NCBI GenBank assembly: GCA_902791965.1
Contig: CADAXZ010000007.1
Coordinates: forward strand, 1-40,218
Reading direction: 5' to 3'
DNA from: Candidatus Proelusimicrobium bovinum
GTDB taxonomy: Bacteria; Elusimicrobiota; Elusimicrobia; Elusimicrobiales; Elusimicrobiaceae
DNA: 40,218 bases
Each line of letters opens with the position of its first letter. Position 1 is the stretch's first letter. Under the pieces are notes generated by a model. It did no database searches. It was not told the DNA's origin and was given only the letters and a program-made list of their open reading frames with translations. Of the stretch, positions 1,389 to 32,265 are shown piece by piece. Position numbers and translations under genes: made by a program.

Positions 1389-3297
1389 AGTTTATCCTCT
1401 TTGAGTTAAATATCATTATAATTACGGTAATAAATATTATTAAAAATAAATCATACCAACGGGCAGATTGACAAGCCCCTATTATATACCAATAAGATAA
1501 AACACCTGCAAGCACAGATATACAAACATTCTGCTTTATTATCCTTGCGCGGCTTGCCTGAAAACCAAAAACCCTTTTAAAAGCAGCAAAATCCCTGTCT
1601 TTTATTATTATATCAACCCAACTTACAAAAACATTATTAGCCGCATTAAAAGCAATACCGACGCCGGCTTGTAAAAGAGCCAAAATATCATTAAAACCGT
1701 CGCCTAACATTACTGTCTTTTCATTCATATTTGCAGCCGCACATATTCGCGCAGCCTTATCCTGCGGGAACATATCGCCGTAATATTCTTCTATACCTGC
1801 CATATTTGCAGCCGCTCCCACCGCACCGCGGTTATCGCCGGAAATTAAACATATTTTTTTGCCTTTTTGTTTAATAAAAGCAATAGTATCTTTGACATTT
1901 GCCCGCAGCCTGTCTTTAAAATATACGGCCCCGATATACTTGCCGTTTTTGGCTACATAAAATACTGTTCTTTGTGTATCTTCCGCAGAAGGTAAGCCTT
2001 CCACGGCATTTTGTTCAAGCCAACTTTTGCGCCCTGTCATTATGGTATTTCTTCCTTCTTTTACCACAGTACCGAAATTCGGCGCAAATTCCATAGAAGT
2101 TATTTTAGGTACAGGAAGTTTGTTTTTTCTCGCATATTCCTTTAAGGCAACGGAAAAAATATTTTCCGCAGAATATTGGGCGGCATAAGCCGCTTTGATA
2201 AGGTCTTCTTCTTTTATTTTTTCGGCCGGTTCAATTTCCGCTACTTCAAGGCGGCCCGCTGTTAAAGTGCCCGTCTTATCAATAAAGATTTTAGTACTTT
2301 CATTAAGCAAATTAAGGGCATTATCATTTTGTATAAAAATGCCGTATTTTTGGGCGTTTTTTTTAGTAAAATAAACAGGCAGTAAAACTGCGGCCATATA
2401 AGTTACCGGCCCGCTTAAAGCCAAAATGAACAGAAAAACCAAAAACCAATAAAAAATATTTTCCGGCTGCCAAAGCATACTGCCTATTAATTGTAAACAG
2501 GCAATAATAAAAAAGAATATAAGTACCTTATAGGCATAGATTTCCAACATACTCGGCAGAAGGATTTTTTTTGTTTCGCTCTTTTTGACTTCTTCCAAAA
2601 CACCCGCTATTTTAGAAGTATTTTTTAAACTTACTGCTTCTGCCTGTACTTCTTCGCCTTTATTAATACTTCCGGCCAGTAAAAGCCCGCCGGCCTGCTT
2701 AGCCGCTAAAGTTATATTGCCGGTAAGCAAACTTTCATCTACAAAAGTTTTCCCTTTGGTTATACGGCAGTCAACGGCTATTCTTTCGCCGTGTTTGATA
2801 ATAAGGCTATCGCCTAATTCCACCTCAGAAACAAACATTTTTCTTATTTTGCCGTCAGCACATATTTTAAGAACCGATTTAGCAATAAAACCGTCAAGGC
2901 TTTCAATAAATTTTCTGCTTTGCCCTATATGCTTAATCTCAAAATACTTTATAAAGTTTGAAACCGCAAAAATAAAAGGCATAACAGCAGAAAAACCTTG
3001 CACAGGTACAGATATACCCTCGCGCAGCACATTTAATGCGGAAAATAATAAAGCCGCTAACGCGCTTACAACAACAAAAGCATTAAATCCGATATAACAA
3101 CGCAAAAGTTGAAGGATTGCCCCTCTTATAAACAGTTCTCCGCCCCAAAAAAAAGTTATAAGCGTTAAAAACAATTTTGTTGTTGAGGAAAAATTAAAAA
3201 TATAACACATCAGCAGCAAAATTGCAATAAAAACGCTTCCCCATCCCCTTGCAAGATACGAAGAAGGATAAAAAAGAACGGTTTTTGCGTTTGTCAT
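1381..3297 (-). CDS. Divergent P1B-like P-type ATPase
   Basis: A 638-aa P-type ATPase with the P1B plan: four N-terminal membrane segments, actuator loop, two core segments, P/N domains, and two C-terminal segments. The phosphorylation motif DKTGTLT (Asp340) and hinge GDGFND (Asp533) are intact. Three family hallmarks are altered. The actuator TGE reads TGN (Asn194), the metal-site CPC/SPC reads SGP (295-297) in LALSGPVTY, and the N-domain HP dipeptide is missing (SAENIFSVALKEYA). There is no N-terminal CxxC metal-binding domain. TGE glutamate normally drives dephosphorylation, so the pump may be slow, altered or regulatory. The substrate cannot be read from the sequence. It starts 9 bases after the TPR lipoprotein stop and overlaps queF by 8 bases. 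Confidence 0.88.
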   Translation of the reverse strand: MTNAKTVLFYPSSYLARGWGSVFIAILLLMCYIFNFSSTTKLFLTLITFFWGGELFIRGAILQLLRCYIGFNAFVVVSALAALLFSALNVLREGISVPVQGFSAVMPFIFAVSNFIKYFEIKHIGQSRKFIESLDGFIAKSVLKICADGKIRKMFVSEVELGDSLIIKHGERIAVDCRITKGKTFVDESLLTGNITLAAKQAGGLLLAGSINKGEEVQAEAVSLKNTSKIAGVLEEVKKSETKKILLPSMLEIYAYKVLIFFFIIACLQLIGSMLWQPENIFYWFLVFLFILALSGPVTYMAAVLLPVYFTKKNAQKYGIFIQNDNALNLLNESTKIFIDKTGTLTAGRLEVAEIEPAEKIKEEDLIKAAYAAQYSAENIFSVALKEYARKNKLPVPKITSMEFAPNFGTVVKEGRNTIMTGRKSWLEQNAVEGLPSAEDTQRTVFYVAKNGKYIGAVYFKDRLRANVKDTIAFIKQKGKKICLISGDNRGAVGAAANMAGIEEYYGDMFPQDKAARICAAANMNEKTVMLGDGFNDILALLQAGVGIAFNAANNVFVSWVDIIIKDRDFAAFKRVFGFQASRARIIKQNVCISVLAGVLSYWYIIGACQSARWYDLFLIIFITVIIMIFNSKRINYE

Positions 3298-22215: not shown

Positions 22216-25200
22216 TTAATTACTTAATTCTCTATCACTCGCAACATCACCCGGCTTTGCACCTTTTGGCCCACAACCTTTTGCGGCAATGTTAATTTGA
22301 ATCCTTCCATTACCGAATGATACATCTCTATCTTCTCTATCTTTATATCTCTTATAGCCTGTTGTATCAAGTTCGTCTTTGGGTGTTACATTCTCAAAAC
22401 CTACGACATGTGTCGCTTCAGGACTTAAAGATACTTTAACTTTAGAAACTAAGTCATTGGCATTATCATCTTTCTGAAGTCTTTCAAACATTTTATGCAT
22501 AGAATAGATTGCTCTATCTTCAGACAATGCCTGATTACATTTTTTCCTTGCCTCAGTATCTTGATTACCTTTAGGACCGTAGTTATATTTTTTAACCACG
22601 CCGGTCGTGATGTTCACATCAACTGCCCCCCAAGAATCTAATTTAGAATTCTTGTTTTTTACGCCATTATCATAAGTAGGACACTTTTCAAACGCATCAC
22701 TACCAGCGAAACTTGTAAAACCTGTGACATAAAGATTTTGGCCTGCACTTGTATTATCGGAAACAGTCTGTAAGCATTGTAAAAACTTAGCATATGCATC
22801 ATCAAACTGTTTAGTTTCATTTGCTTTAAAACTTGTTGTATCAAAACTTAAATATGCCGCAAAATTACAAGCCTTTTTTATCTCTACATCAGTAGGATTA
22901 CAGAAAGGACATAAAGCATCATTATCTACAATCGGTTCTAATCCAGGAATACCTGAAATCACATTAGAAGCAATCAACGGAGAGCCATCATCTTCGGCTT
23001 GACCTTCTCCGCTACCGGATTTCCTTAGAATTTCCCTCTGTTCAGCCTCAAGTCTCTTTTTACATATAGGTTGACAAAGATGTATTTTATCCTTGCCATC
23101 CGTTTCATTCCCTATATGCCCTGCTATACAGGTACCACAGTTTTCATTATTTGCATCAATACCAAACTGTGCGAGGTATTTGCGTTTTGCTTCATCACTA
23201 ATCGGATTAGTACTCTTCTGTAAGAAAACGGTTGCATCTCCCTTTTGAACTTTAACAGCATTAAAGAAAGAATAAGAAGAACCATCTTTTACAGCACAAT
23301 ATTCATCATTATCGTCGTCATCGTCATTATCCGGTGGTGTAGGGCAAATGCTTGAAGAACAACCCCAAGAATAATCACAAGTCTTAACTTTGTAAGCCCC
23401 ATTGATACCTACCAATGTTTTAACATCCACTTGTGTTATGAGTTTGCCAGCATGGAAAGTATTAGCATAACTCTTATCTATATTAGCATTAGTAACAATC
23501 CAATATACCCTGCCATTATTAGGAGTTGCTTTACTATCTACAACAGAATTTTCACCAATCAATAACTGTTGAGTAAAGAATCTATCAGCACCATTATTAC
23601 CTGCACCTGCTCTACGAAAAGCAGAGTTTTGTTCCGCCGTAACTTCATCAATAGTACGGATAAATACGCCTTCTCCTTCATTGTTTTTGCCGTTTTCTAC
23701 AACAACAGCAAACACCCTATCCTTTTTACTCAAGCCTTTAATATCAGCATAGAATTTAGTCTGGGCGGCTTTTAGACCTTCCTTAACAACATCACCGCAT
23801 TCAATATTATCAGCACCCTGATTTATGCCGACAGGATTGATTTCAACACCTGAATTAAAAACTTGACATTCATTTGAGCCAATTTCCGCTATTGCTTTAG
23901 AACGATCTTTAGCATCCATCAAGTCAAACAAGTCAGAACGTGTAAGAGGTTTTGACGGGAAATCAGCAGGCAAAGAAGAACAATATCTCCATCCTTCAGT
24001 CGCTCTTTCTTTTGCTTTTGCTATATTATTTGCAATTTCTTTTTTAGTTTGATTAGCCTTAAAAGAACCTATATTGGTAATTTCGCATTTAGTTTGTATT
24101 TGAGCTAATTCACTTTCACTAATCGTAAGAGTATTATCTGTAGGCTCATTTAATTTTATGATAAACAAGTCATTAGAGTCTTTTTTAGCATTTTTGTTAA
24201 TTGTTCCTTGGGTATTTTTTTCTCTTGCCAACACATAAATTACTACTTTTTCTTGTTTCTTTTCTCTTACTCTGCCATCTTTGCGTGTAGCACTTACAGT
24301 ATATCTAATAGGCTTTTGATTTACCCCATCACAATTAGCATTATACCGAGTTTTAGACAAACCGGAAAGTTTGCCCGCTTTAAGACCCAAACATTCAAGA
24401 CGAGCCTGCAAGGCATTTTTCTGTCCTGCAGGGTCAACATCTTCATGACCACCTAAGTTAGCACAACTTTTTAACCAAGCTTCATAAACATCAGCACCTA
24501 AAGAATTTACAGAACCATCTTTACCAGCAGACCCCTTAAAGACAGCAGCAAAGTCTTCAAAACTTCTTCCTACTTGTTTACCGTCTTTTACACAAACGGT
24601 AGAATCGTCCCCAGGTTTTATTCCTAAAAAGTTTTTTACAGAGCCGTCTTCGGAACCTGTAAGCAGGCACATACCCAAATTGGTGGCAACTTTAATTAAG
24701 GAATCGGAAAGGGCTTTCTGCCAATTATAATTCCAAAGTTCCCAAAGTTTCTGGGAGCGTTCCTGCATCATATCCCACCACCAAGGTTTCTGATTGGTGT
24801 AGTTGAATTTATGATCCGGAACTGTGCCTTGGGACGCTAAACGCGCTGCAGCCGCACGAGGATCGCCTGCCGCACCTAAAGGAGAGCCGTCAACATCGCG
24901 CAACTGCGCTTCAAACAAAGCCTGCTTTGCAGGGCCTTGGTTTAAAGCACCTATTGCACGGTCTCTTTCTCTGTAAAGATTATCGCCCGTAAGCACTCTG
25001 CCCGCACCGGAAGTAGTCATAGGCTGTAAAGCAACAGGCCTTACTCCTGCTCTGGGGGCTGAAGGAGAAGGATTTCTTGTAGGGGCACCGCCGATAGCCA
25101 AATTGCGTGTTAAACCTCCGTTTCCGTTGCCGAAGGAGAGGTTTCTGTTTCTTAAAGCACCAAGCGCAGTAGGTTTACGGGTAGCGGAATTCCTGATACC

Positions 25201-25695
25201 GCCTTTTGCCGCTTTGCCATAAGTGCTGATATTTGGCTTAGAGGTTACTTCCTCGTGGGAAAAACTTTCACGGCGGTTATCGTCTATCATAGAACTGGTA
25301 GGCGGTTCGTATTCGTCCTCTTCCATAGCAGGGGTATCCTGATGTCCCTTATTGGTAATAATCATATCTAAGGGATTACGCCTGTCTGCAGGGACAATAT
25401 CACCGTCGCCCGGGATATAATCCAAACCGTGTCCGCCGTCACCGACAAAATTGTCATAACCTAAATTATCTAAACCGCTTACATAATCGGTTCCGGAATT
25501 ACGGCTAAGCAACGGCAGCAATAACAACGCAGCGGCCGCTACTATTATGAAAGGCAAATCCCTTTGAGCCCTTTGGATAAGGGTTCTCTTGGCTTTGCCG
25601 TCTCCTCCTGAACGGGAGGGAATACGTTTGGATAATGGAAGAGATTTACTCTTCTTTAACTTATCGCTAAACGTAAAGCTATCTTTATTTGGCAT
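22216..25695 (-). CDS. Large membrane-anchored protein with C-terminal OmpA-like domain
   Basis: A 1159-aa protein with a basic cytoplasmic N-terminus, one membrane anchor (47-64, DLPFIIVAAAALLLLPLL), then a Gly/Asn/Arg-rich low-complexity stretch to about 250. It also has a Trp-rich patch KPWWWDMMQERSQKLW, a long unrecognised region with many cysteines, and an acidic run DNDDDDDND before a Cys-rich part. Residues about 945-1130 look like an OmpA-type peptidoglycan-binding fold: YLSFDTTSF, LYVTGFTSFAG, NQALSEDRA, and GFENVTPKDE with a late R-x-x-R. The usual TD of the binding loop reads TS. It has its own promoter, a leader hairpin, a strong GAGGAGG site and a terminator. It likely links the inner membrane to the cell wall. 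Confidence 0.8.
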   Translation of the reverse strand: MPNKDSFTFSDKLKKSKSLPLSKRIPSRSGGDGKAKRTLIQRAQRDLPFIIVAAAALLLLPLLSRNSGTDYVSGLDNLGYDNFVGDGGHGLDYIPGDGDIVPADRRNPLDMIITNKGHQDTPAMEEDEYEPPTSSMIDDNRRESFSHEEVTSKPNISTYGKAAKGGIRNSATRKPTALGALRNRNLSFGNGNGGLTRNLAIGGAPTRNPSPSAPRAGVRPVALQPMTTSGAGRVLTGDNLYRERDRAIGALNQGPAKQALFEAQLRDVDGSPLGAAGDPRAAAARLASQGTVPDHKFNYTNQKPWWWDMMQERSQKLWELWNYNWQKALSDSLIKVATNLGMCLLTGSEDGSVKNFLGIKPGDDSTVCVKDGKQVGRSFEDFAAVFKGSAGKDGSVNSLGADVYEAWLKSCANLGGHEDVDPAGQKNALQARLECLGLKAGKLSGLSKTRYNANCDGVNQKPIRYTVSATRKDGRVREKKQEKVVIYVLAREKNTQGTINKNAKKDSNDLFIIKLNEPTDNTLTISESELAQIQTKCEITNIGSFKANQTKKEIANNIAKAKERATEGWRYCSSLPADFPSKPLTRSDLFDLMDAKDRSKAIAEIGSNECQVFNSGVEINPVGINQGADNIECGDVVKEGLKAAQTKFYADIKGLSKKDRVFAVVVENGKNNEGEGVFIRTIDEVTAEQNSAFRRAGAGNNGADRFFTQQLLIGENSVVDSKATPNNGRVYWIVTNANIDKSYANTFHAGKLITQVDVKTLVGINGAYKVKTCDYSWGCSSSICPTPPDNDDDDDNDEYCAVKDGSSYSFFNAVKVQKGDATVFLQKSTNPISDEAKRKYLAQFGIDANNENCGTCIAGHIGNETDGKDKIHLCQPICKKRLEAEQREILRKSGSGEGQAEDDGSPLIASNVISGIPGLEPIVDNDALCPFCNPTDVEIKKACNFAAYLSFDTTSFKANETKQFDDAYAKFLQCLQTVSDNTSAGQNLYVTGFTSFAGSDAFEKCPTYDNGVKNKNSKLDSWGAVDVNITTGVVKKYNYGPKGNQDTEARKKCNQALSEDRAIYSMHKMFERLQKDDNANDLVSKVKVSLSPEATHVVGFENVTPKDELDTTGYKRYKDREDRDVSFGNGRIQINIAAKGCGPKGAKPGDVASDRELSN

Positions 25696-25744
25696 AGTGC
25701 CTCCTCTTTACATTTATTTTACATCTACTTCAAATCTGATACGG

Positions 25745-25779
25745 ATATAAGGTTTGCCTTTAAAGGCAATACCCTATAT
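25745..25779 (-). other. Long hairpin in the 5' leader of the 1159-aa gene
   Basis: A 9-bp outer stem (AUAUAGGGU with ACCUUAUAU, one G-U) encloses a 6-bp inner stem UUGCCU/AGGCAA with a UUAA loop and a single bulged A. It starts just after the predicted transcription start and is not followed by a T-run, so it looks like an mRNA stability or regulatory hairpin, not a terminator. Confidence 0.5.
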
Positions 25780-25783
25780 TCCC

Positions 25784-25812
25784 ATTAGACAACAATTTTT
25801 AAACAATGTCAA
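25784..25812 (-). promoter_or_regulatory. Promoter of the 1159-aa gene
   Basis: TTGACA (25812-25807), a 17-base spacer, TCTAAT (25789-25784). It lies in the 192-base gap before the gene. The gap also holds a weak TATCAG/CTGATA repeat at 25848-25888 and AT-rich sequence. Confidence 0.75.
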
Positions 25813-25887
25813 TTAATAATTAATATAAAAATATTTCTTATTTTAATATCAGCCTTTTATTATCAAATTTAGTTTAAAAACCTGATA

Positions 25888-29677: not shown

Positions 29678-30661
29678 TTAGAATAAAGAACCTAAATACG
29701 AACCTAAAACCGTCTTACCTACATCCAACAATTGTGCTACTACACACCCCGCATTAGCAAAAGGGTCTTCCGCACAGGTTTTTTCACTTTCGTTATCTTT
29801 TTCTTTCTTTTTATCATTAAGTTTGGTATCTAATTTATCTAATTCTTCACTATTACCGGCTTTTTCAAGTTTGTCTTTCAAATCTTCTTCATCTACTTCT
29901 AAAGCAGCGGCATTTTTTTCATTCTCACTTTCCAAAAATTCTTTACTCTCTTTTTTTGCTCCGCCTTGAAAAGCCTCTGCCGCGCCTGCCGCAGCGGCAT
30001 TCATATCTTTCGCATTTGCTGCACGAGCGCTTAACTGTGCTGCCTGCTGGAATCCTGTATCTCTGCCGCCTTTTACCTGTGCAAGCAAAGCCGCCTGCTG
30101 TTGCATATTTTTAGAATTTTGCGCTCTGTTATCATTATAATATCCAGTAGAGCCGGCTGCGCCGCGGCTTGCGCCGCCAAAAGATCCGGAACCTGAAGAT
30201 CCGCTTAACTGCCCTTTATTTGTTCTTACAACAGGTGCAGGGCTGTTTACGCGGACATTTTTCTTTTTGTTTTTACTTTTCTTTACGGCAACTTCTTCTT
30301 GTGCGGCTTTATATTCGGCATCAGGCGCTGCCGGAACGCCCTGCGTAATATCAGCTAACTGTCTTGCTTCCCTTTGTTTAGAAGAAAATAAGCCGTTAAT
30401 AAAATCATTTTTGGCTATATCTTCATATCTGGCTGAAGCAAGCAGATATTTTTCTGCTTCATCATCGGAAAACGGCATTTTGCCTAAATCAAATGCCTGC
30501 TTACGGTATGCCTCCTGAGAATCATTTTTCTGTTTGTTCCCCTTTACCGCAGCAGTTAAAGAAAGTAAAAATACTACTACCAATATACAAGCGCCCCAAG
30601 TATAAATTTGAGTATTTTTATTTTTTCTTTTACCGCCGTTTCTCATTATTATTGAAGACAT
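29678..30661 (-). CDS. Membrane-anchored protein, DIAKND-motif paralogue 1
   Basis: A 327-aa protein with one membrane segment (20-38, ACILVVVFLLSLTAAV). The block at 63-102 reads MPFSDDEAEKYLLASARYED, then IAKNDFINGLF, then EARQ. A Ser/Gly-rich linker, a Gln/Ala-rich helical region with GGRDTGFQQAAQLSARAA and AEAFQGG, and an acidic helix EKNAAALEVDEED follow. The C-terminus has two cysteines and QLLDVGKTVLGSYL. All these blocks recur in the same order in the 30837 gene. I choose ATG 30661 because AAAAGG is 8 bases upstream. A GTG at 30670 overlaps that site. It has its own promoter and the 57-nt leader element. Confidence 0.75.
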   Translation of the reverse strand: MSSIIMRNGGKRKNKNTQIYTWGACILVVVFLLSLTAAVKGNKQKNDSQEAYRKQAFDLGKMPFSDDEAEKYLLASARYEDIAKNDFINGLFSSKQREARQLADITQGVPAAPDAEYKAAQEEVAVKKSKNKKKNVRVNSPAPVVRTNKGQLSGSSGSGSFGGASRGAAGSTGYYNDNRAQNSKNMQQQAALLAQVKGGRDTGFQQAAQLSARAANAKDMNAAAAGAAEAFQGGAKKESKEFLESENEKNAAALEVDEEDLKDKLEKAGNSEELDKLDTKLNDKKKEKDNESEKTCAEDPFANAGCVVAQLLDVGKTVLGSYLGSLF

Positions 30662-30691
30662 ACTTAACACCTTTTATATATATAATAAAAC

Positions 30692-30748
30692 TGGCCCCTG
30701 CTGACCGGCCCTTTATGTAAAGGCCCTCAAACACGGAGCATATTTATC
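30692..30748 (-). repeat. Conserved structured leader element, copy A
   Basis: A 57-base element in the 5' leader of the 29678 gene, differing from copy B at two positions. On the minus strand GCUCC (30739-30735) can pair with GGGGC (30698-30694), with one U-G pair. An inner hairpin (30726-30707) is GGGCCUUU/AAAGGGCC with one G-G mismatch. The facing loops GUGUUUGA and GGUCAGCA are identical in both copies. It also contains a tiny ATG-CTC-CGT-GTT-TGA reading frame. It does not match a riboswitch class I know. Confidence 0.75.
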
Positions 30749-30770
30749 AGTACACTAAGTACCTACCTAA

Positions 30771-30799
30771 AGTATACCAACAAACAGCCAAATTGTCAA
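30771..30799 (-). promoter_or_regulatory. Promoter of the 29678 gene
   Basis: TTGACA (30799-30794), a 17-base spacer, TATACT (30776-30771), a near-consensus sigma-70 promoter. The predicted start is about 16 bases before leader copy A. Confidence 0.85.
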
Positions 30800-30836
30800 T
30801 ACCGAAAAATAAATATATATAGTATACAACGGCATA

Positions 30837-32114
30837 TTATTTCCCTGCTTTTCTATTCTGTCTTTCTGCTTTCTTGTTCGCAGCGGCCTGCTGCTTTTGT
30901 TTTGTCTCCCAAGCCTTTACCGACATATTATGTTTACTATCCCAGCCACCTATTTTACCACCTGCTTTGTAATACGCGGCTTCAGCAGCAAGGTTTTCCC
31001 TTGTAGTAGGATCTTTTTCCGTCTTCATCTGTTCTTCAAGCCTGCCTACCTCAGCGGCCTGATCGGGAGACATACCGTTTTTATCTTTTTTGCTTAACAT
31101 AGATGTTAATGCCTGCTTACCTACATCCATTAACATATTCATAAGTGTCCCGGCAGTGCAAGCCATGTCAAAAGAGCCGTTCATCATAAGCCCGTCGCAT
31201 TTCATATCTTTTTTATTTTTGTCTTTTTTATCATTATCTTTTTTTGCTTTATCCAACGCTTCATCAAGTGTATTAGCCGCGCGGGCCTCTTTATCTTTAT
31301 CTAACTCCCCCATCATCTTATTTATATCAAGGCCTTCGGCATTTTTTTCCAATTCTCCTTTAAGGTCCCCTTCCAAATCACCTGCATTTTGGAAAGCATC
31401 TGCCGCCAATCTGTGGGCTGCTTCCAAATCATTGGTATTTGCGGCTTCTTTACTTTTATTGTATGCCTGCATAAAACCGCCGCCGCGCCCGCTGCCGTCT
31501 TTAATATTTTGCACTAACTGCCCGCTTAAAGATGAACCTTTACCGCCGGCAGATGAAGATGTGTTGTATTGTTTATCATCACTGCGCCATACACTGTGCG
31601 ATACCCCGCCGCCTGCACCGCTGCCGACTTTAATACCGCTTTGGCTTGACATTTGCCCTTTTGATGTCCTTTCTTTGCGTGCATTTATTGCATTTGTCCT
31701 TGATCTCCGGTATTTTTCTTTAGCCTGTTTTACTTTTGCCTTTTCCTTAGCGGCCTGTGCATAATCCTCATCGGGAGGAGGAGGCGCACCGTTTGCGGAA
31801 TCTTCTGCTTGGCGTGCTTCTTTTTCATCTTCAGAAAATAAGGCACTGATTAAATCATTCTTAGCAATATCCCTATAACTTACAGAAGATAACAATTCGG
31901 CTTCGGCTTCCTCATCGGAAAAGGGCATATCAGCCAAATCTTTATAATCATTATATCTGTATTCCGGATCTAACGGATCGGCAGGTTTAGGCCCGCCGAG
32001 TAAAACAGATGCAACTACCGCTATACCGAATACCGCCACAGCCCCGTATCCTATCCAAGATGACATAGGGCTTTTTTGGTTTTTGCCATTATTTCCCTGT
32101 ATAATTACCGGCAT
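30837..32114 (-). CDS. Membrane-anchored protein, DIAKND-motif paralogue 2
   Basis: A 425-aa protein paralogous to the 29678 product. It has one membrane segment (20-40, WIGYGAVAVFGIAVVASVLL), the block MPFSDEEAEAELLSSVSYRD, then IAKNDLISALF, then EARQ at exactly 63-102. A basic linker, a Ser/Gly-rich segment, GRGGGFMQAYNKSKEAAN, DAFQNAG and EKNAEGLDIN follow. Two cysteines precede LMDVGKQALTSML. A Lys/Gln-rich tail of about 80 residues is specific to this copy. A GAGGG site lies 7 bases before ATG. It has its own promoter and leader copy B. The function is unknown. Confidence 0.76.
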   Translation of the reverse strand: MPVIIQGNNGKNQKSPMSSWIGYGAVAVFGIAVVASVLLGGPKPADPLDPEYRYNDYKDLADMPFSDEEAEAELLSSVSYRDIAKNDLISALFSEDEKEARQAEDSANGAPPPPDEDYAQAAKEKAKVKQAKEKYRRSRTNAINARKERTSKGQMSSQSGIKVGSGAGGGVSHSVWRSDDKQYNTSSSAGGKGSSLSGQLVQNIKDGSGRGGGFMQAYNKSKEAANTNDLEAAHRLAADAFQNAGDLEGDLKGELEKNAEGLDINKMMGELDKDKEARAANTLDEALDKAKKDNDKKDKNKKDMKCDGLMMNGSFDMACTAGTLMNMLMDVGKQALTSMLSKKDKNGMSPDQAAEVGRLEEQMKTEKDPTTRENLAAEAAYYKAGGKIGGWDSKHNMSVKAWETKQKQQAAANKKAERQNRKAGK

Positions 32115-32157
32115 ATCTTTACCCTCTTTTAAAATCTAAATTAATATACAAAAATTT

Positions 32158-32214
32158 TGGCCCCTGCTGACCGGCCCTTAATTTAAAGGCCCTCAAACAC
32201 GGAGCATATTTATC
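32158..32214 (-). repeat. Conserved structured leader element, copy B
   Basis: The second copy of the 57-base element, 43 bases before the ATG of the 30837 gene. The two changes from copy A fall in the apical part of the inner hairpin (32192-32173). The closing stem (32205-32201 with 32164-32160) and both internal-loop strands are unchanged. Confidence 0.75.
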
Positions 32215-32236
32215 CGCACATCAAGTGCTTACTAAA

Positions 32237-32265
32237 AGTCTACAAACAAAGGCTTTAATTGTCAA
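32237..32265 (-). promoter_or_regulatory. Promoter of the 30837 gene
   Basis: TTGACA (32265-32260), a 17-base spacer, TAGACT (32242-32237). The layout relative to leader copy B is the same as for the 29678 promoter and copy A. Confidence 0.78.

What the first reader, a model, noticed from the sequence alone, without database searches (positions are those of the whole stretch)
30692..32214. Two copies of a 57-nt structured leader RNA, possibly a new riboswitch-like element
Copies at 30692-30748 and 32158-32214 match at 55 of 57 positions while the genes they precede have diverged widely. Both changes fall in the apical hairpin. Closing stem GCUCC/GGGGC and the facing loops GUGUUUGA and GGUCAGCA are invariant. 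Each copy lies a fixed distance after a TTGACA-N17 promoter. Stem, conserved internal loop, stem is how small ligand- or protein-binding RNAs look. It could instead be an sRNA or protein target for coordinated control of the two paralogues.
Basis: seen in the sequence. Interest (0 to 1): 0.75.

Follow-up and report, generated by a model that had tools for sequence, protein, structure and literature searches.

The report
New leader RNA of gut Elusimicrobia
A small folded RNA sits at the predicted start of the messenger RNAs of a surface-appendage-like gene cluster in about 80 species of one family of gut bacteria; it matches no catalogued RNA family and looks like an undescribed control element whose partner is unknown.

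Summary
Both copies are on the minus strand, match at 55/57 positions, and start 23 nt after the -10 box of a TTGACA-N17 promoter. The near-identity of these two copies is weak evidence by itself: their apical hairpins look homogenised by local gene conversion. The stronger evidence is comparative. A covariance model finds the element at E<1e-8 in 81 of 340 genomes of the phylum, all in the window's own family (4 genera) and none in the other families searched. It lies upstream of homologues of the same membrane-protein gene. In one genus where the cluster is split, both halves carry it. Over 87 instances, 97.3% of cells pair, with 250 two-sided changes (68 in shuffles). All 87 lie 16-36 nt after a sigma70-type -10 box, so the element should form the 5' end of the mRNA. 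Invariant features are P1 CUC/GRG, a G/GG internal loop and a U-tract about 4 nt after P1. Rfam has no match. I read it as a new family-specific cis-acting leader RNA, most likely bound by a protein that tunes expression of its own operon. A small-molecule riboswitch, a put-like RNA acting on RNA polymerase and an mRNA stabiliser remain open. A classic terminator and SD sequestration are not supported.

The parts
30771..30799 (-). sigma70-type promoter of copy 1: TTGACA (30799-30794), 17 nt, TATACT (30776-30771)
   Evidence: 84 of 87 homologous elements have a 17-nt spacer
30749..30763 (-). P0, optional hairpin at the predicted 5' end of the RNA, copy 1 (GGUAC UUAGU GUACU)
   Evidence: fold -4.2 kcal/mol, 1% of shuffles as good; present where the leader is 22 nt or longer, absent from leaders of 9-17 nt
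30692..30748 (-). copy 1 of the conserved element as reported
   Evidence: CM hit 30678-30752
30694..30739 (-). main hairpin, copy 1: P1 GCUCC/GGGGC, conserved core UGU.UGAG/GGUCAGCA with a 1x2 G/GG loop, variable apical stem P2
30684..30690 (-). U-tract UUUUAUU, starting 4 nt after P1, copy 1
   Evidence: U at +6 in 86/86 and at +7 in 85/86 homologues
29678..30661 (-). gene P0001 (327 aa), N-terminal membrane segment, no Pfam match; head of the downstream genes
32237..32265 (-). sigma70-type promoter of copy 2: TTGACA, 17 nt, TAGACT
32216..32228 (-). P0 hairpin, copy 2 (GCAC UUGAU GUGC)
   Evidence: -5.5 kcal/mol; C-G for U-A compensation relative to copy 1
32158..32214 (-). copy 2 of the conserved element as reported
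   Evidence: CM hit 32144-32218
32160..32205 (-). main hairpin, copy 2
32150..32154 (-). U-tract UUUUU, copy 2
   Evidence: conservation
30837..32114 (-). gene P0002 (425 aa), paralogue of P0001 (36-38% identity), no Pfam match
22216..25695 (-). gene P0003 (1159 aa), last large gene of the cluster; its homologue carries the RNA leader in genus g2, where the cluster is split

Best explanation
Supported by comparison: this is a new family of cis-acting 5'-leader RNA restricted, in these searches, to one family of Elusimicrobiota. It is made from a strong sigma70-type promoter and should be the first ~45-75 nt of the mRNA of a Tad-like envelope/appendage gene cluster. It consists of an optional cap hairpin P0 at the predicted 5' end, a main hairpin with a constant bulged lower half (P1 CUCY/RGRG, UGU.UGAG/GGUCARCA with an invariant G/GG loop) and a free apical stem, and a U-tract starting about 4 nt after P1; in most instances the SD follows 15-22 nt after P1. 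Inferred: the constant lower half plus U-tract is a binding site, most likely for a protein (cluster-encoded or a general RNA-binding or ribosomal protein). Occupancy of it just upstream of the ribosome-binding site sets translation and/or lifetime of the operon mRNA, so that units carrying the leader are expressed together. Estimated probability: real, conserved, cis-acting leader RNA about 0.95; acts after transcription initiation on its own operon about 0.75; partner is a protein rather than a small molecule or RNA polymerase about 0.45.
For: Structure: 87 instances, 97.3% of cells paired, 250 two-sided changes against 68 in shuffles and at most 72 in slid controls; at least 99 two-sided substitutions on a tree of the downstream proteins. 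Leader position: every instance lies 16-36 nt downstream of a TTGACA/TATACT-type promoter, spacer 17 nt in 84 of 87. The next gene is in sense, with a predicted TSS-AUG distance of 81-147 nt in 82 of 84 leaders, and P1-to-SD 15-22 nt in most. Co-occurrence: RNA in 81 genomes, downstream protein in 83 of the family, both absent from genera g3 and g5. Regulon behaviour: gene order is conserved between genera; where the cluster is split (G018), the P0001-type and P0003-type genes each carry a copy. Recognition-like constraint: on the 5' strand of the core, U21 and U29 never change while their partners vary A/G (8 and 3 changes), and G32, G85, G86 and tail U103 are invariant in 87/87. Against the obvious switches: the T-tail score right after P1 is low, mean 1.24; the P1 5' strand pairs the SD in few leaders even with P1 blocked.
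Against: No transcript, binding partner or effect on expression has been shown for any of these genomes. The cluster-encoded proteins scanned against Pfam gave no recognised RNA-binding domain. The U-tract at a fixed distance also suits transcriptional pausing or termination. The P1-to-SD distance is much longer in g1 and g2 (28-66 nt), which weakens a purely ribosome-proximal mechanism. G015 has the gene without a detectable leader.
Confidence: 0.5

Rival explanations
1. A small-molecule riboswitch of a new class: the bulged core binds a metabolite or signalling nucleotide and changes translation or termination of the appendage operon.
For: Conserved core with variable apical stem, leader position and compact regulon resemble orphan riboswitch candidates. 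Small hairpin aptamers with an adjacent U-tract exist, e.g. HMP-PP (PMC6478431).
Against: Few invariant unpaired nucleotides (G32, G85, G86), no pseudoknot or alternative helix supported, no metabolic or transport gene association, confined to one family.
Confidence: 0.2
2. A put-like RNA that stays on RNA polymerase and suppresses pausing or termination over the long cluster.
For: Directly follows a strong promoter in all 87 cases, heads long gene clusters and is repeated where the cluster is split or has an internal promoter. HK022 putL is also promoter-proximal, ~70 nt, two stem-loops with bulges, acting without a protein factor (PMC9378689).
Against: P0, the only candidate second stem-loop, is missing from many members. 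Intergenic gaps downstream are mostly short, and the terminator-like matches in the window are close to chance, 15 found against 11.8 expected.
Confidence: 0.13
3. A 5' stabiliser of abundant mRNAs: a structured 5' end protects the transcript from decay without sensing anything.
For: The element lies within ~10-30 nt of the predicted 5' end; P0, when present, starts at +1/+2; promoters are near consensus.
Against: Plain stability would not need invariant CUC, UG..UGAG, GG..C..C and a U-tract at constant distance.
Confidence: 0.15
4. An intrinsic terminator or attenuator, or a short sRNA ending at the U-tract.
For: Hairpin followed by a U-rich tract in nearly all members; best T-tail score (mean 4.5) is reached 2-4 nt after P1.
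Against: The base of the stem is weak and bulged, U5 is interrupted (UUUUUAUU) in most, G020 has only UUU, T-tail score directly after P1 is low (mean 1.24), and the sense gene with its SD usually follows 15-22 nt after P1.
Confidence: 0.1
5. A DNA operator of the adjacent two-component regulator rather than an RNA element.
For: Position is fixed relative to the promoter, and a LuxR-type response regulator is encoded upstream.
Against: Arbitrary apical stems with at least 99 two-sided compensatory changes and loops of different length are a signature of RNA pairing, not of a DNA site.
Confidence: 0.02

Closest known systems
HMP-PP (thiS motif) riboswitch
   Same: Very compact single-hairpin leader with conserved positions inside the stem and a U-run just after it (PMC6478431).
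   Different: thiS has an uninterrupted strong terminator stem with U6 or more, a conserved loop, an alternative pseudoknotted fold and thiamin genes; here the loop is variable, the stem is bulged, the U-run is displaced and often interrupted, no alternative fold is supported, and the genes are surface genes.
HK022 putL/putR antiterminator RNA
   Same: Promoter-proximal, about the same size, hairpins with conserved bulges, in front of long transcription units (PMC9378689).
   Different: putRNA needs two long stems and is phage-borne; here P0 is dispensable and the element is chromosomal; no action on RNA polymerase is known.
Protein-binding autoregulatory leaders (e.g. the L10 leader of rplJ)
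   Same: Bulged helix with conserved internal loop in an operon leader.
   Different: No ribosomal or other recognised RNA-binding protein among the cluster genes scanned; sequence unrelated to any Rfam leader.

Membership tests
Any Rfam 15 family | covariance-model score above the family's gathering cut-off | tested here: not met
   No hit in the whole window at gathering thresholds; only chance-level hits for copies 1 and 2 and for a g6 and a g2 member
Conserved structured cis-leader RNA (general kind) | conserved secondary structure with compensatory changes | tested here: met
Conserved structured cis-leader RNA (general kind) | constant position between a promoter and one homologous gene or regulon | tested here: met
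Riboswitch | direct binding of a small ligand | not testable with these tools
   needs in-line probing or SHAPE
Riboswitch | expression platform: alternative pairing, terminator or SD sequestration | tested here: inconclusive
   no covarying alternative helix, weak T-tail after P1, SD sequestration predicted in only 13% of leaders when P1 is blocked
HMP-PP (thiS) terminator-embedded riboswitch | uninterrupted strong terminator stem directly followed by U6 or more, conserved loop, thiamin genes | tested here: not met
Intrinsic terminator | GC-rich stem base immediately followed by a U-tract | tested here: not met
   T-tail score directly after P1 mean 1.24; U-tract starts about 4 nt late; A/G-U and G-U pairs at the stem base
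HK022 put RNA | two stem-loops, both part of the RNA polymerase-bound structure | tested here: not met
   P0 absent in members whose leader is 9-17 nt
HK022 put RNA | suppression of termination with RNA polymerase alone | not testable with these tools
   needs in vitro transcription

The most novel reading that the evidence does not exclude
A new riboswitch class that senses an unknown small signal and sets expression of a surface-appendage gene cluster in gut Elusimicrobiota, with the ligand held by an unusually small bulged-helix core (G/GG loop plus a U-tract docking at fixed distance).
Probability: 0.2. Interest if true: 0.85.

Novelty: new variant of a known kind. Interest (0 to 1): 0.63.

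Why it matters
It is a strongly supported structured RNA with no Rfam entry, and no description was found in the open-access library searched, in a little-studied gut phylum. It marks out a small regulon: a conserved Tad-like cluster with two-component genes nearby. At least 99 compensatory changes and a precise consensus make the binding-partner question directly testable. One genome carrying it (G018) is a single 1,643,562-bp contig in genus g2; from memory that size matches the cultured Elusimicrobium minutum Pei191, in which the cluster is split and both halves keep the RNA.

Tried and rejected
Rfam matches at low E-value (BtsR1, HSUR, rteR, IS128, snoR74 and others) were rejected as chance: below gathering, wrong strand or position, different for each member. 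The exact-pattern scan of 84,980 genomes gave 56 loci; only L036, an Elusimicrobia contig identical to G017, continues the element, the rest match in the pattern alone. An outer helix between the 5' flank and the U-tract has support in genus g1 only (20/2000 permutations) and none in the other genera. SD sequestration by the P1 5' strand is weak. A leader peptide on the SD-like 3' strand of P1 was rejected by inspection: no conserved start codon. K-turn, loop E and ANTAR-type double hairpins were considered from memory and do not fit the consensus. A negative-control search in another phylum could not be run; the roughly 250 other genomes of the phylum served instead.

Full report
Observation. 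Each lies 23 nt downstream of the -10 hexamer of a TTGACA-N17 promoter. The window is in a 1.5-Mb, 135-contig genome whose nearest named relative carrying the element is an 'Elusimicrobia bacterium' assembly (L036). Rfam has no match.

Distribution. Homologues of the two downstream genes in the genus have the same element in front. A covariance model from 19 of these found it in 80 of 340 genomes of the phylum. A model from 87 instances found 81 at E<1e-8, then nothing until E about 3e-3. All 81 are in the window's family: genera g1, g2, g4 and g6. It was not found in g3 or g5 (one genome each), nor convincingly in any other family of the phylum.

Structure. Over 87 aligned instances 97.3% of cells pair; 250 cells carry two-sided changes, against 68 in shuffles and at most 72 when partners are slid. 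On a tree of the downstream proteins at least 99 two-sided substitutions are needed. P1 and the base of P2 covary (G-C to C-G, G-C to A-U), and even core pair A31-U87 changes to G-C once. The CM-fitted alignment leans towards its own structure, but an unguided MAFFT alignment of 19 sequences gave the same fold with two-sided changes in 9 of 17 pairs. R24 and N28 are bulged, and a 1x2 loop G32/G85-G86 is invariant in 87/87. The 5' strand is more constrained than pairing requires: U21 and U29 never change while their partners go A/G. After P1 comes a U-tract at fixed distance, with U at +6 in 86/86 and at +7 in 85/86.

Leader position. All 87 have a TTGACA/TATACT-type promoter with P1 starting 16-36 nt after the -10, so the element should be the 5' end of the mRNA (transcription starts are predicted, not mapped). 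Leaders of 22 nt or more before P1 mostly carry a hairpin P0 starting at +1/+2; leaders of 9-17 nt mostly lack it, so P0 is optional. P1 to SD is 15-22 nt in most members and longer in g1 and g2.

Genes. With few exceptions (contig ends, and an insertion in G023) the next gene encodes a family with a lysine-rich N-terminus, a membrane segment and a motif like YDLA.MPFxxDEAE; the family occurs in 83 genomes of the bacterial family. It has no Pfam match. The cluster also holds a weak TadE-like match, a weak class-III-signal pilin-like small protein, histidine kinases and a LuxR-type response regulator; calling it Tad-like rests on these weak matches. Gene order is conserved between g1 and g6. 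In G018 (g2) the cluster is split, and the P0001-type gene and the P0003-type gene each have their own copy of the RNA. The RNA thus goes with this gene set rather than with one gene.

Duplication caveat. In the clade with both paralogues, constant core positions match between any two copies. In G000 and G017 the apical hairpins of the two paralogues are also nearly identical (15/17, 22/23), while 3' flanks group by orthologue. That pattern suggests local gene conversion of the hairpin.

Mechanism. Not a classic terminator (T-tail score directly after P1 1.24 on average). No general outer helix. No convincing SD sequestration. No recognised RNA-binding protein among the cluster genes scanned. 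What remains is a sequence-specific bulged helix plus U-tract near the 5' end and usually near the ribosome-binding site. I commit to protein recognition affecting translation or decay of its own operon as most likely. A small-ligand riboswitch, a put-like effect on RNA polymerase (compare PMC9378689) and a pure stabiliser are rivals. Supported by comparison: structure, covariation, leader position, regulon, family restriction. Inferred: binding partner, step affected, direction of control.

Literature. Searches of the open-access library found no description of such an RNA in Elusimicrobia; subscription papers are not covered.

Noticed in passing
window 25690-25830 (-): Gene P0003 has a different structured leader: G000, G005, G006 and G013 share a long hairpin ending UAUAUCCGUA (z about -4.4 to -5.4); G002, G003, G010 and G014 share another (UUUUUGCUCGGGUAAUUUUCCCUAAUGAGCGGAAAGA)..
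   Followed up: partly
L198 (G023:C7), leader at 2146-2225 (-): About 0.6 kb containing a 136-aa ORF that resembles DUF559-type endonucleases (from memory, not scanned) lies between the RNA leader and its P0001-family gene.
   Followed up: no
L208/L092 (G015:C20): A P0001-family gene whose upstream region shows no RNA element: a natural loss, a rearrangement or a misassembly.
   Followed up: no
window 30692-30748 and 32158-32214: Hairpins of the two paralogous leaders look homogenised within genomes G000 and G017, while flanks stay orthologue-like: a gene-conversion-like pattern over about 55 nt.
   Followed up: yes
L197, L144, L145 (genus g2): In the g2 copy in front of the P0003-type gene, the apical stem carries an extra long arm (element 93-95 nt instead of ~75-80).
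   Followed up: no
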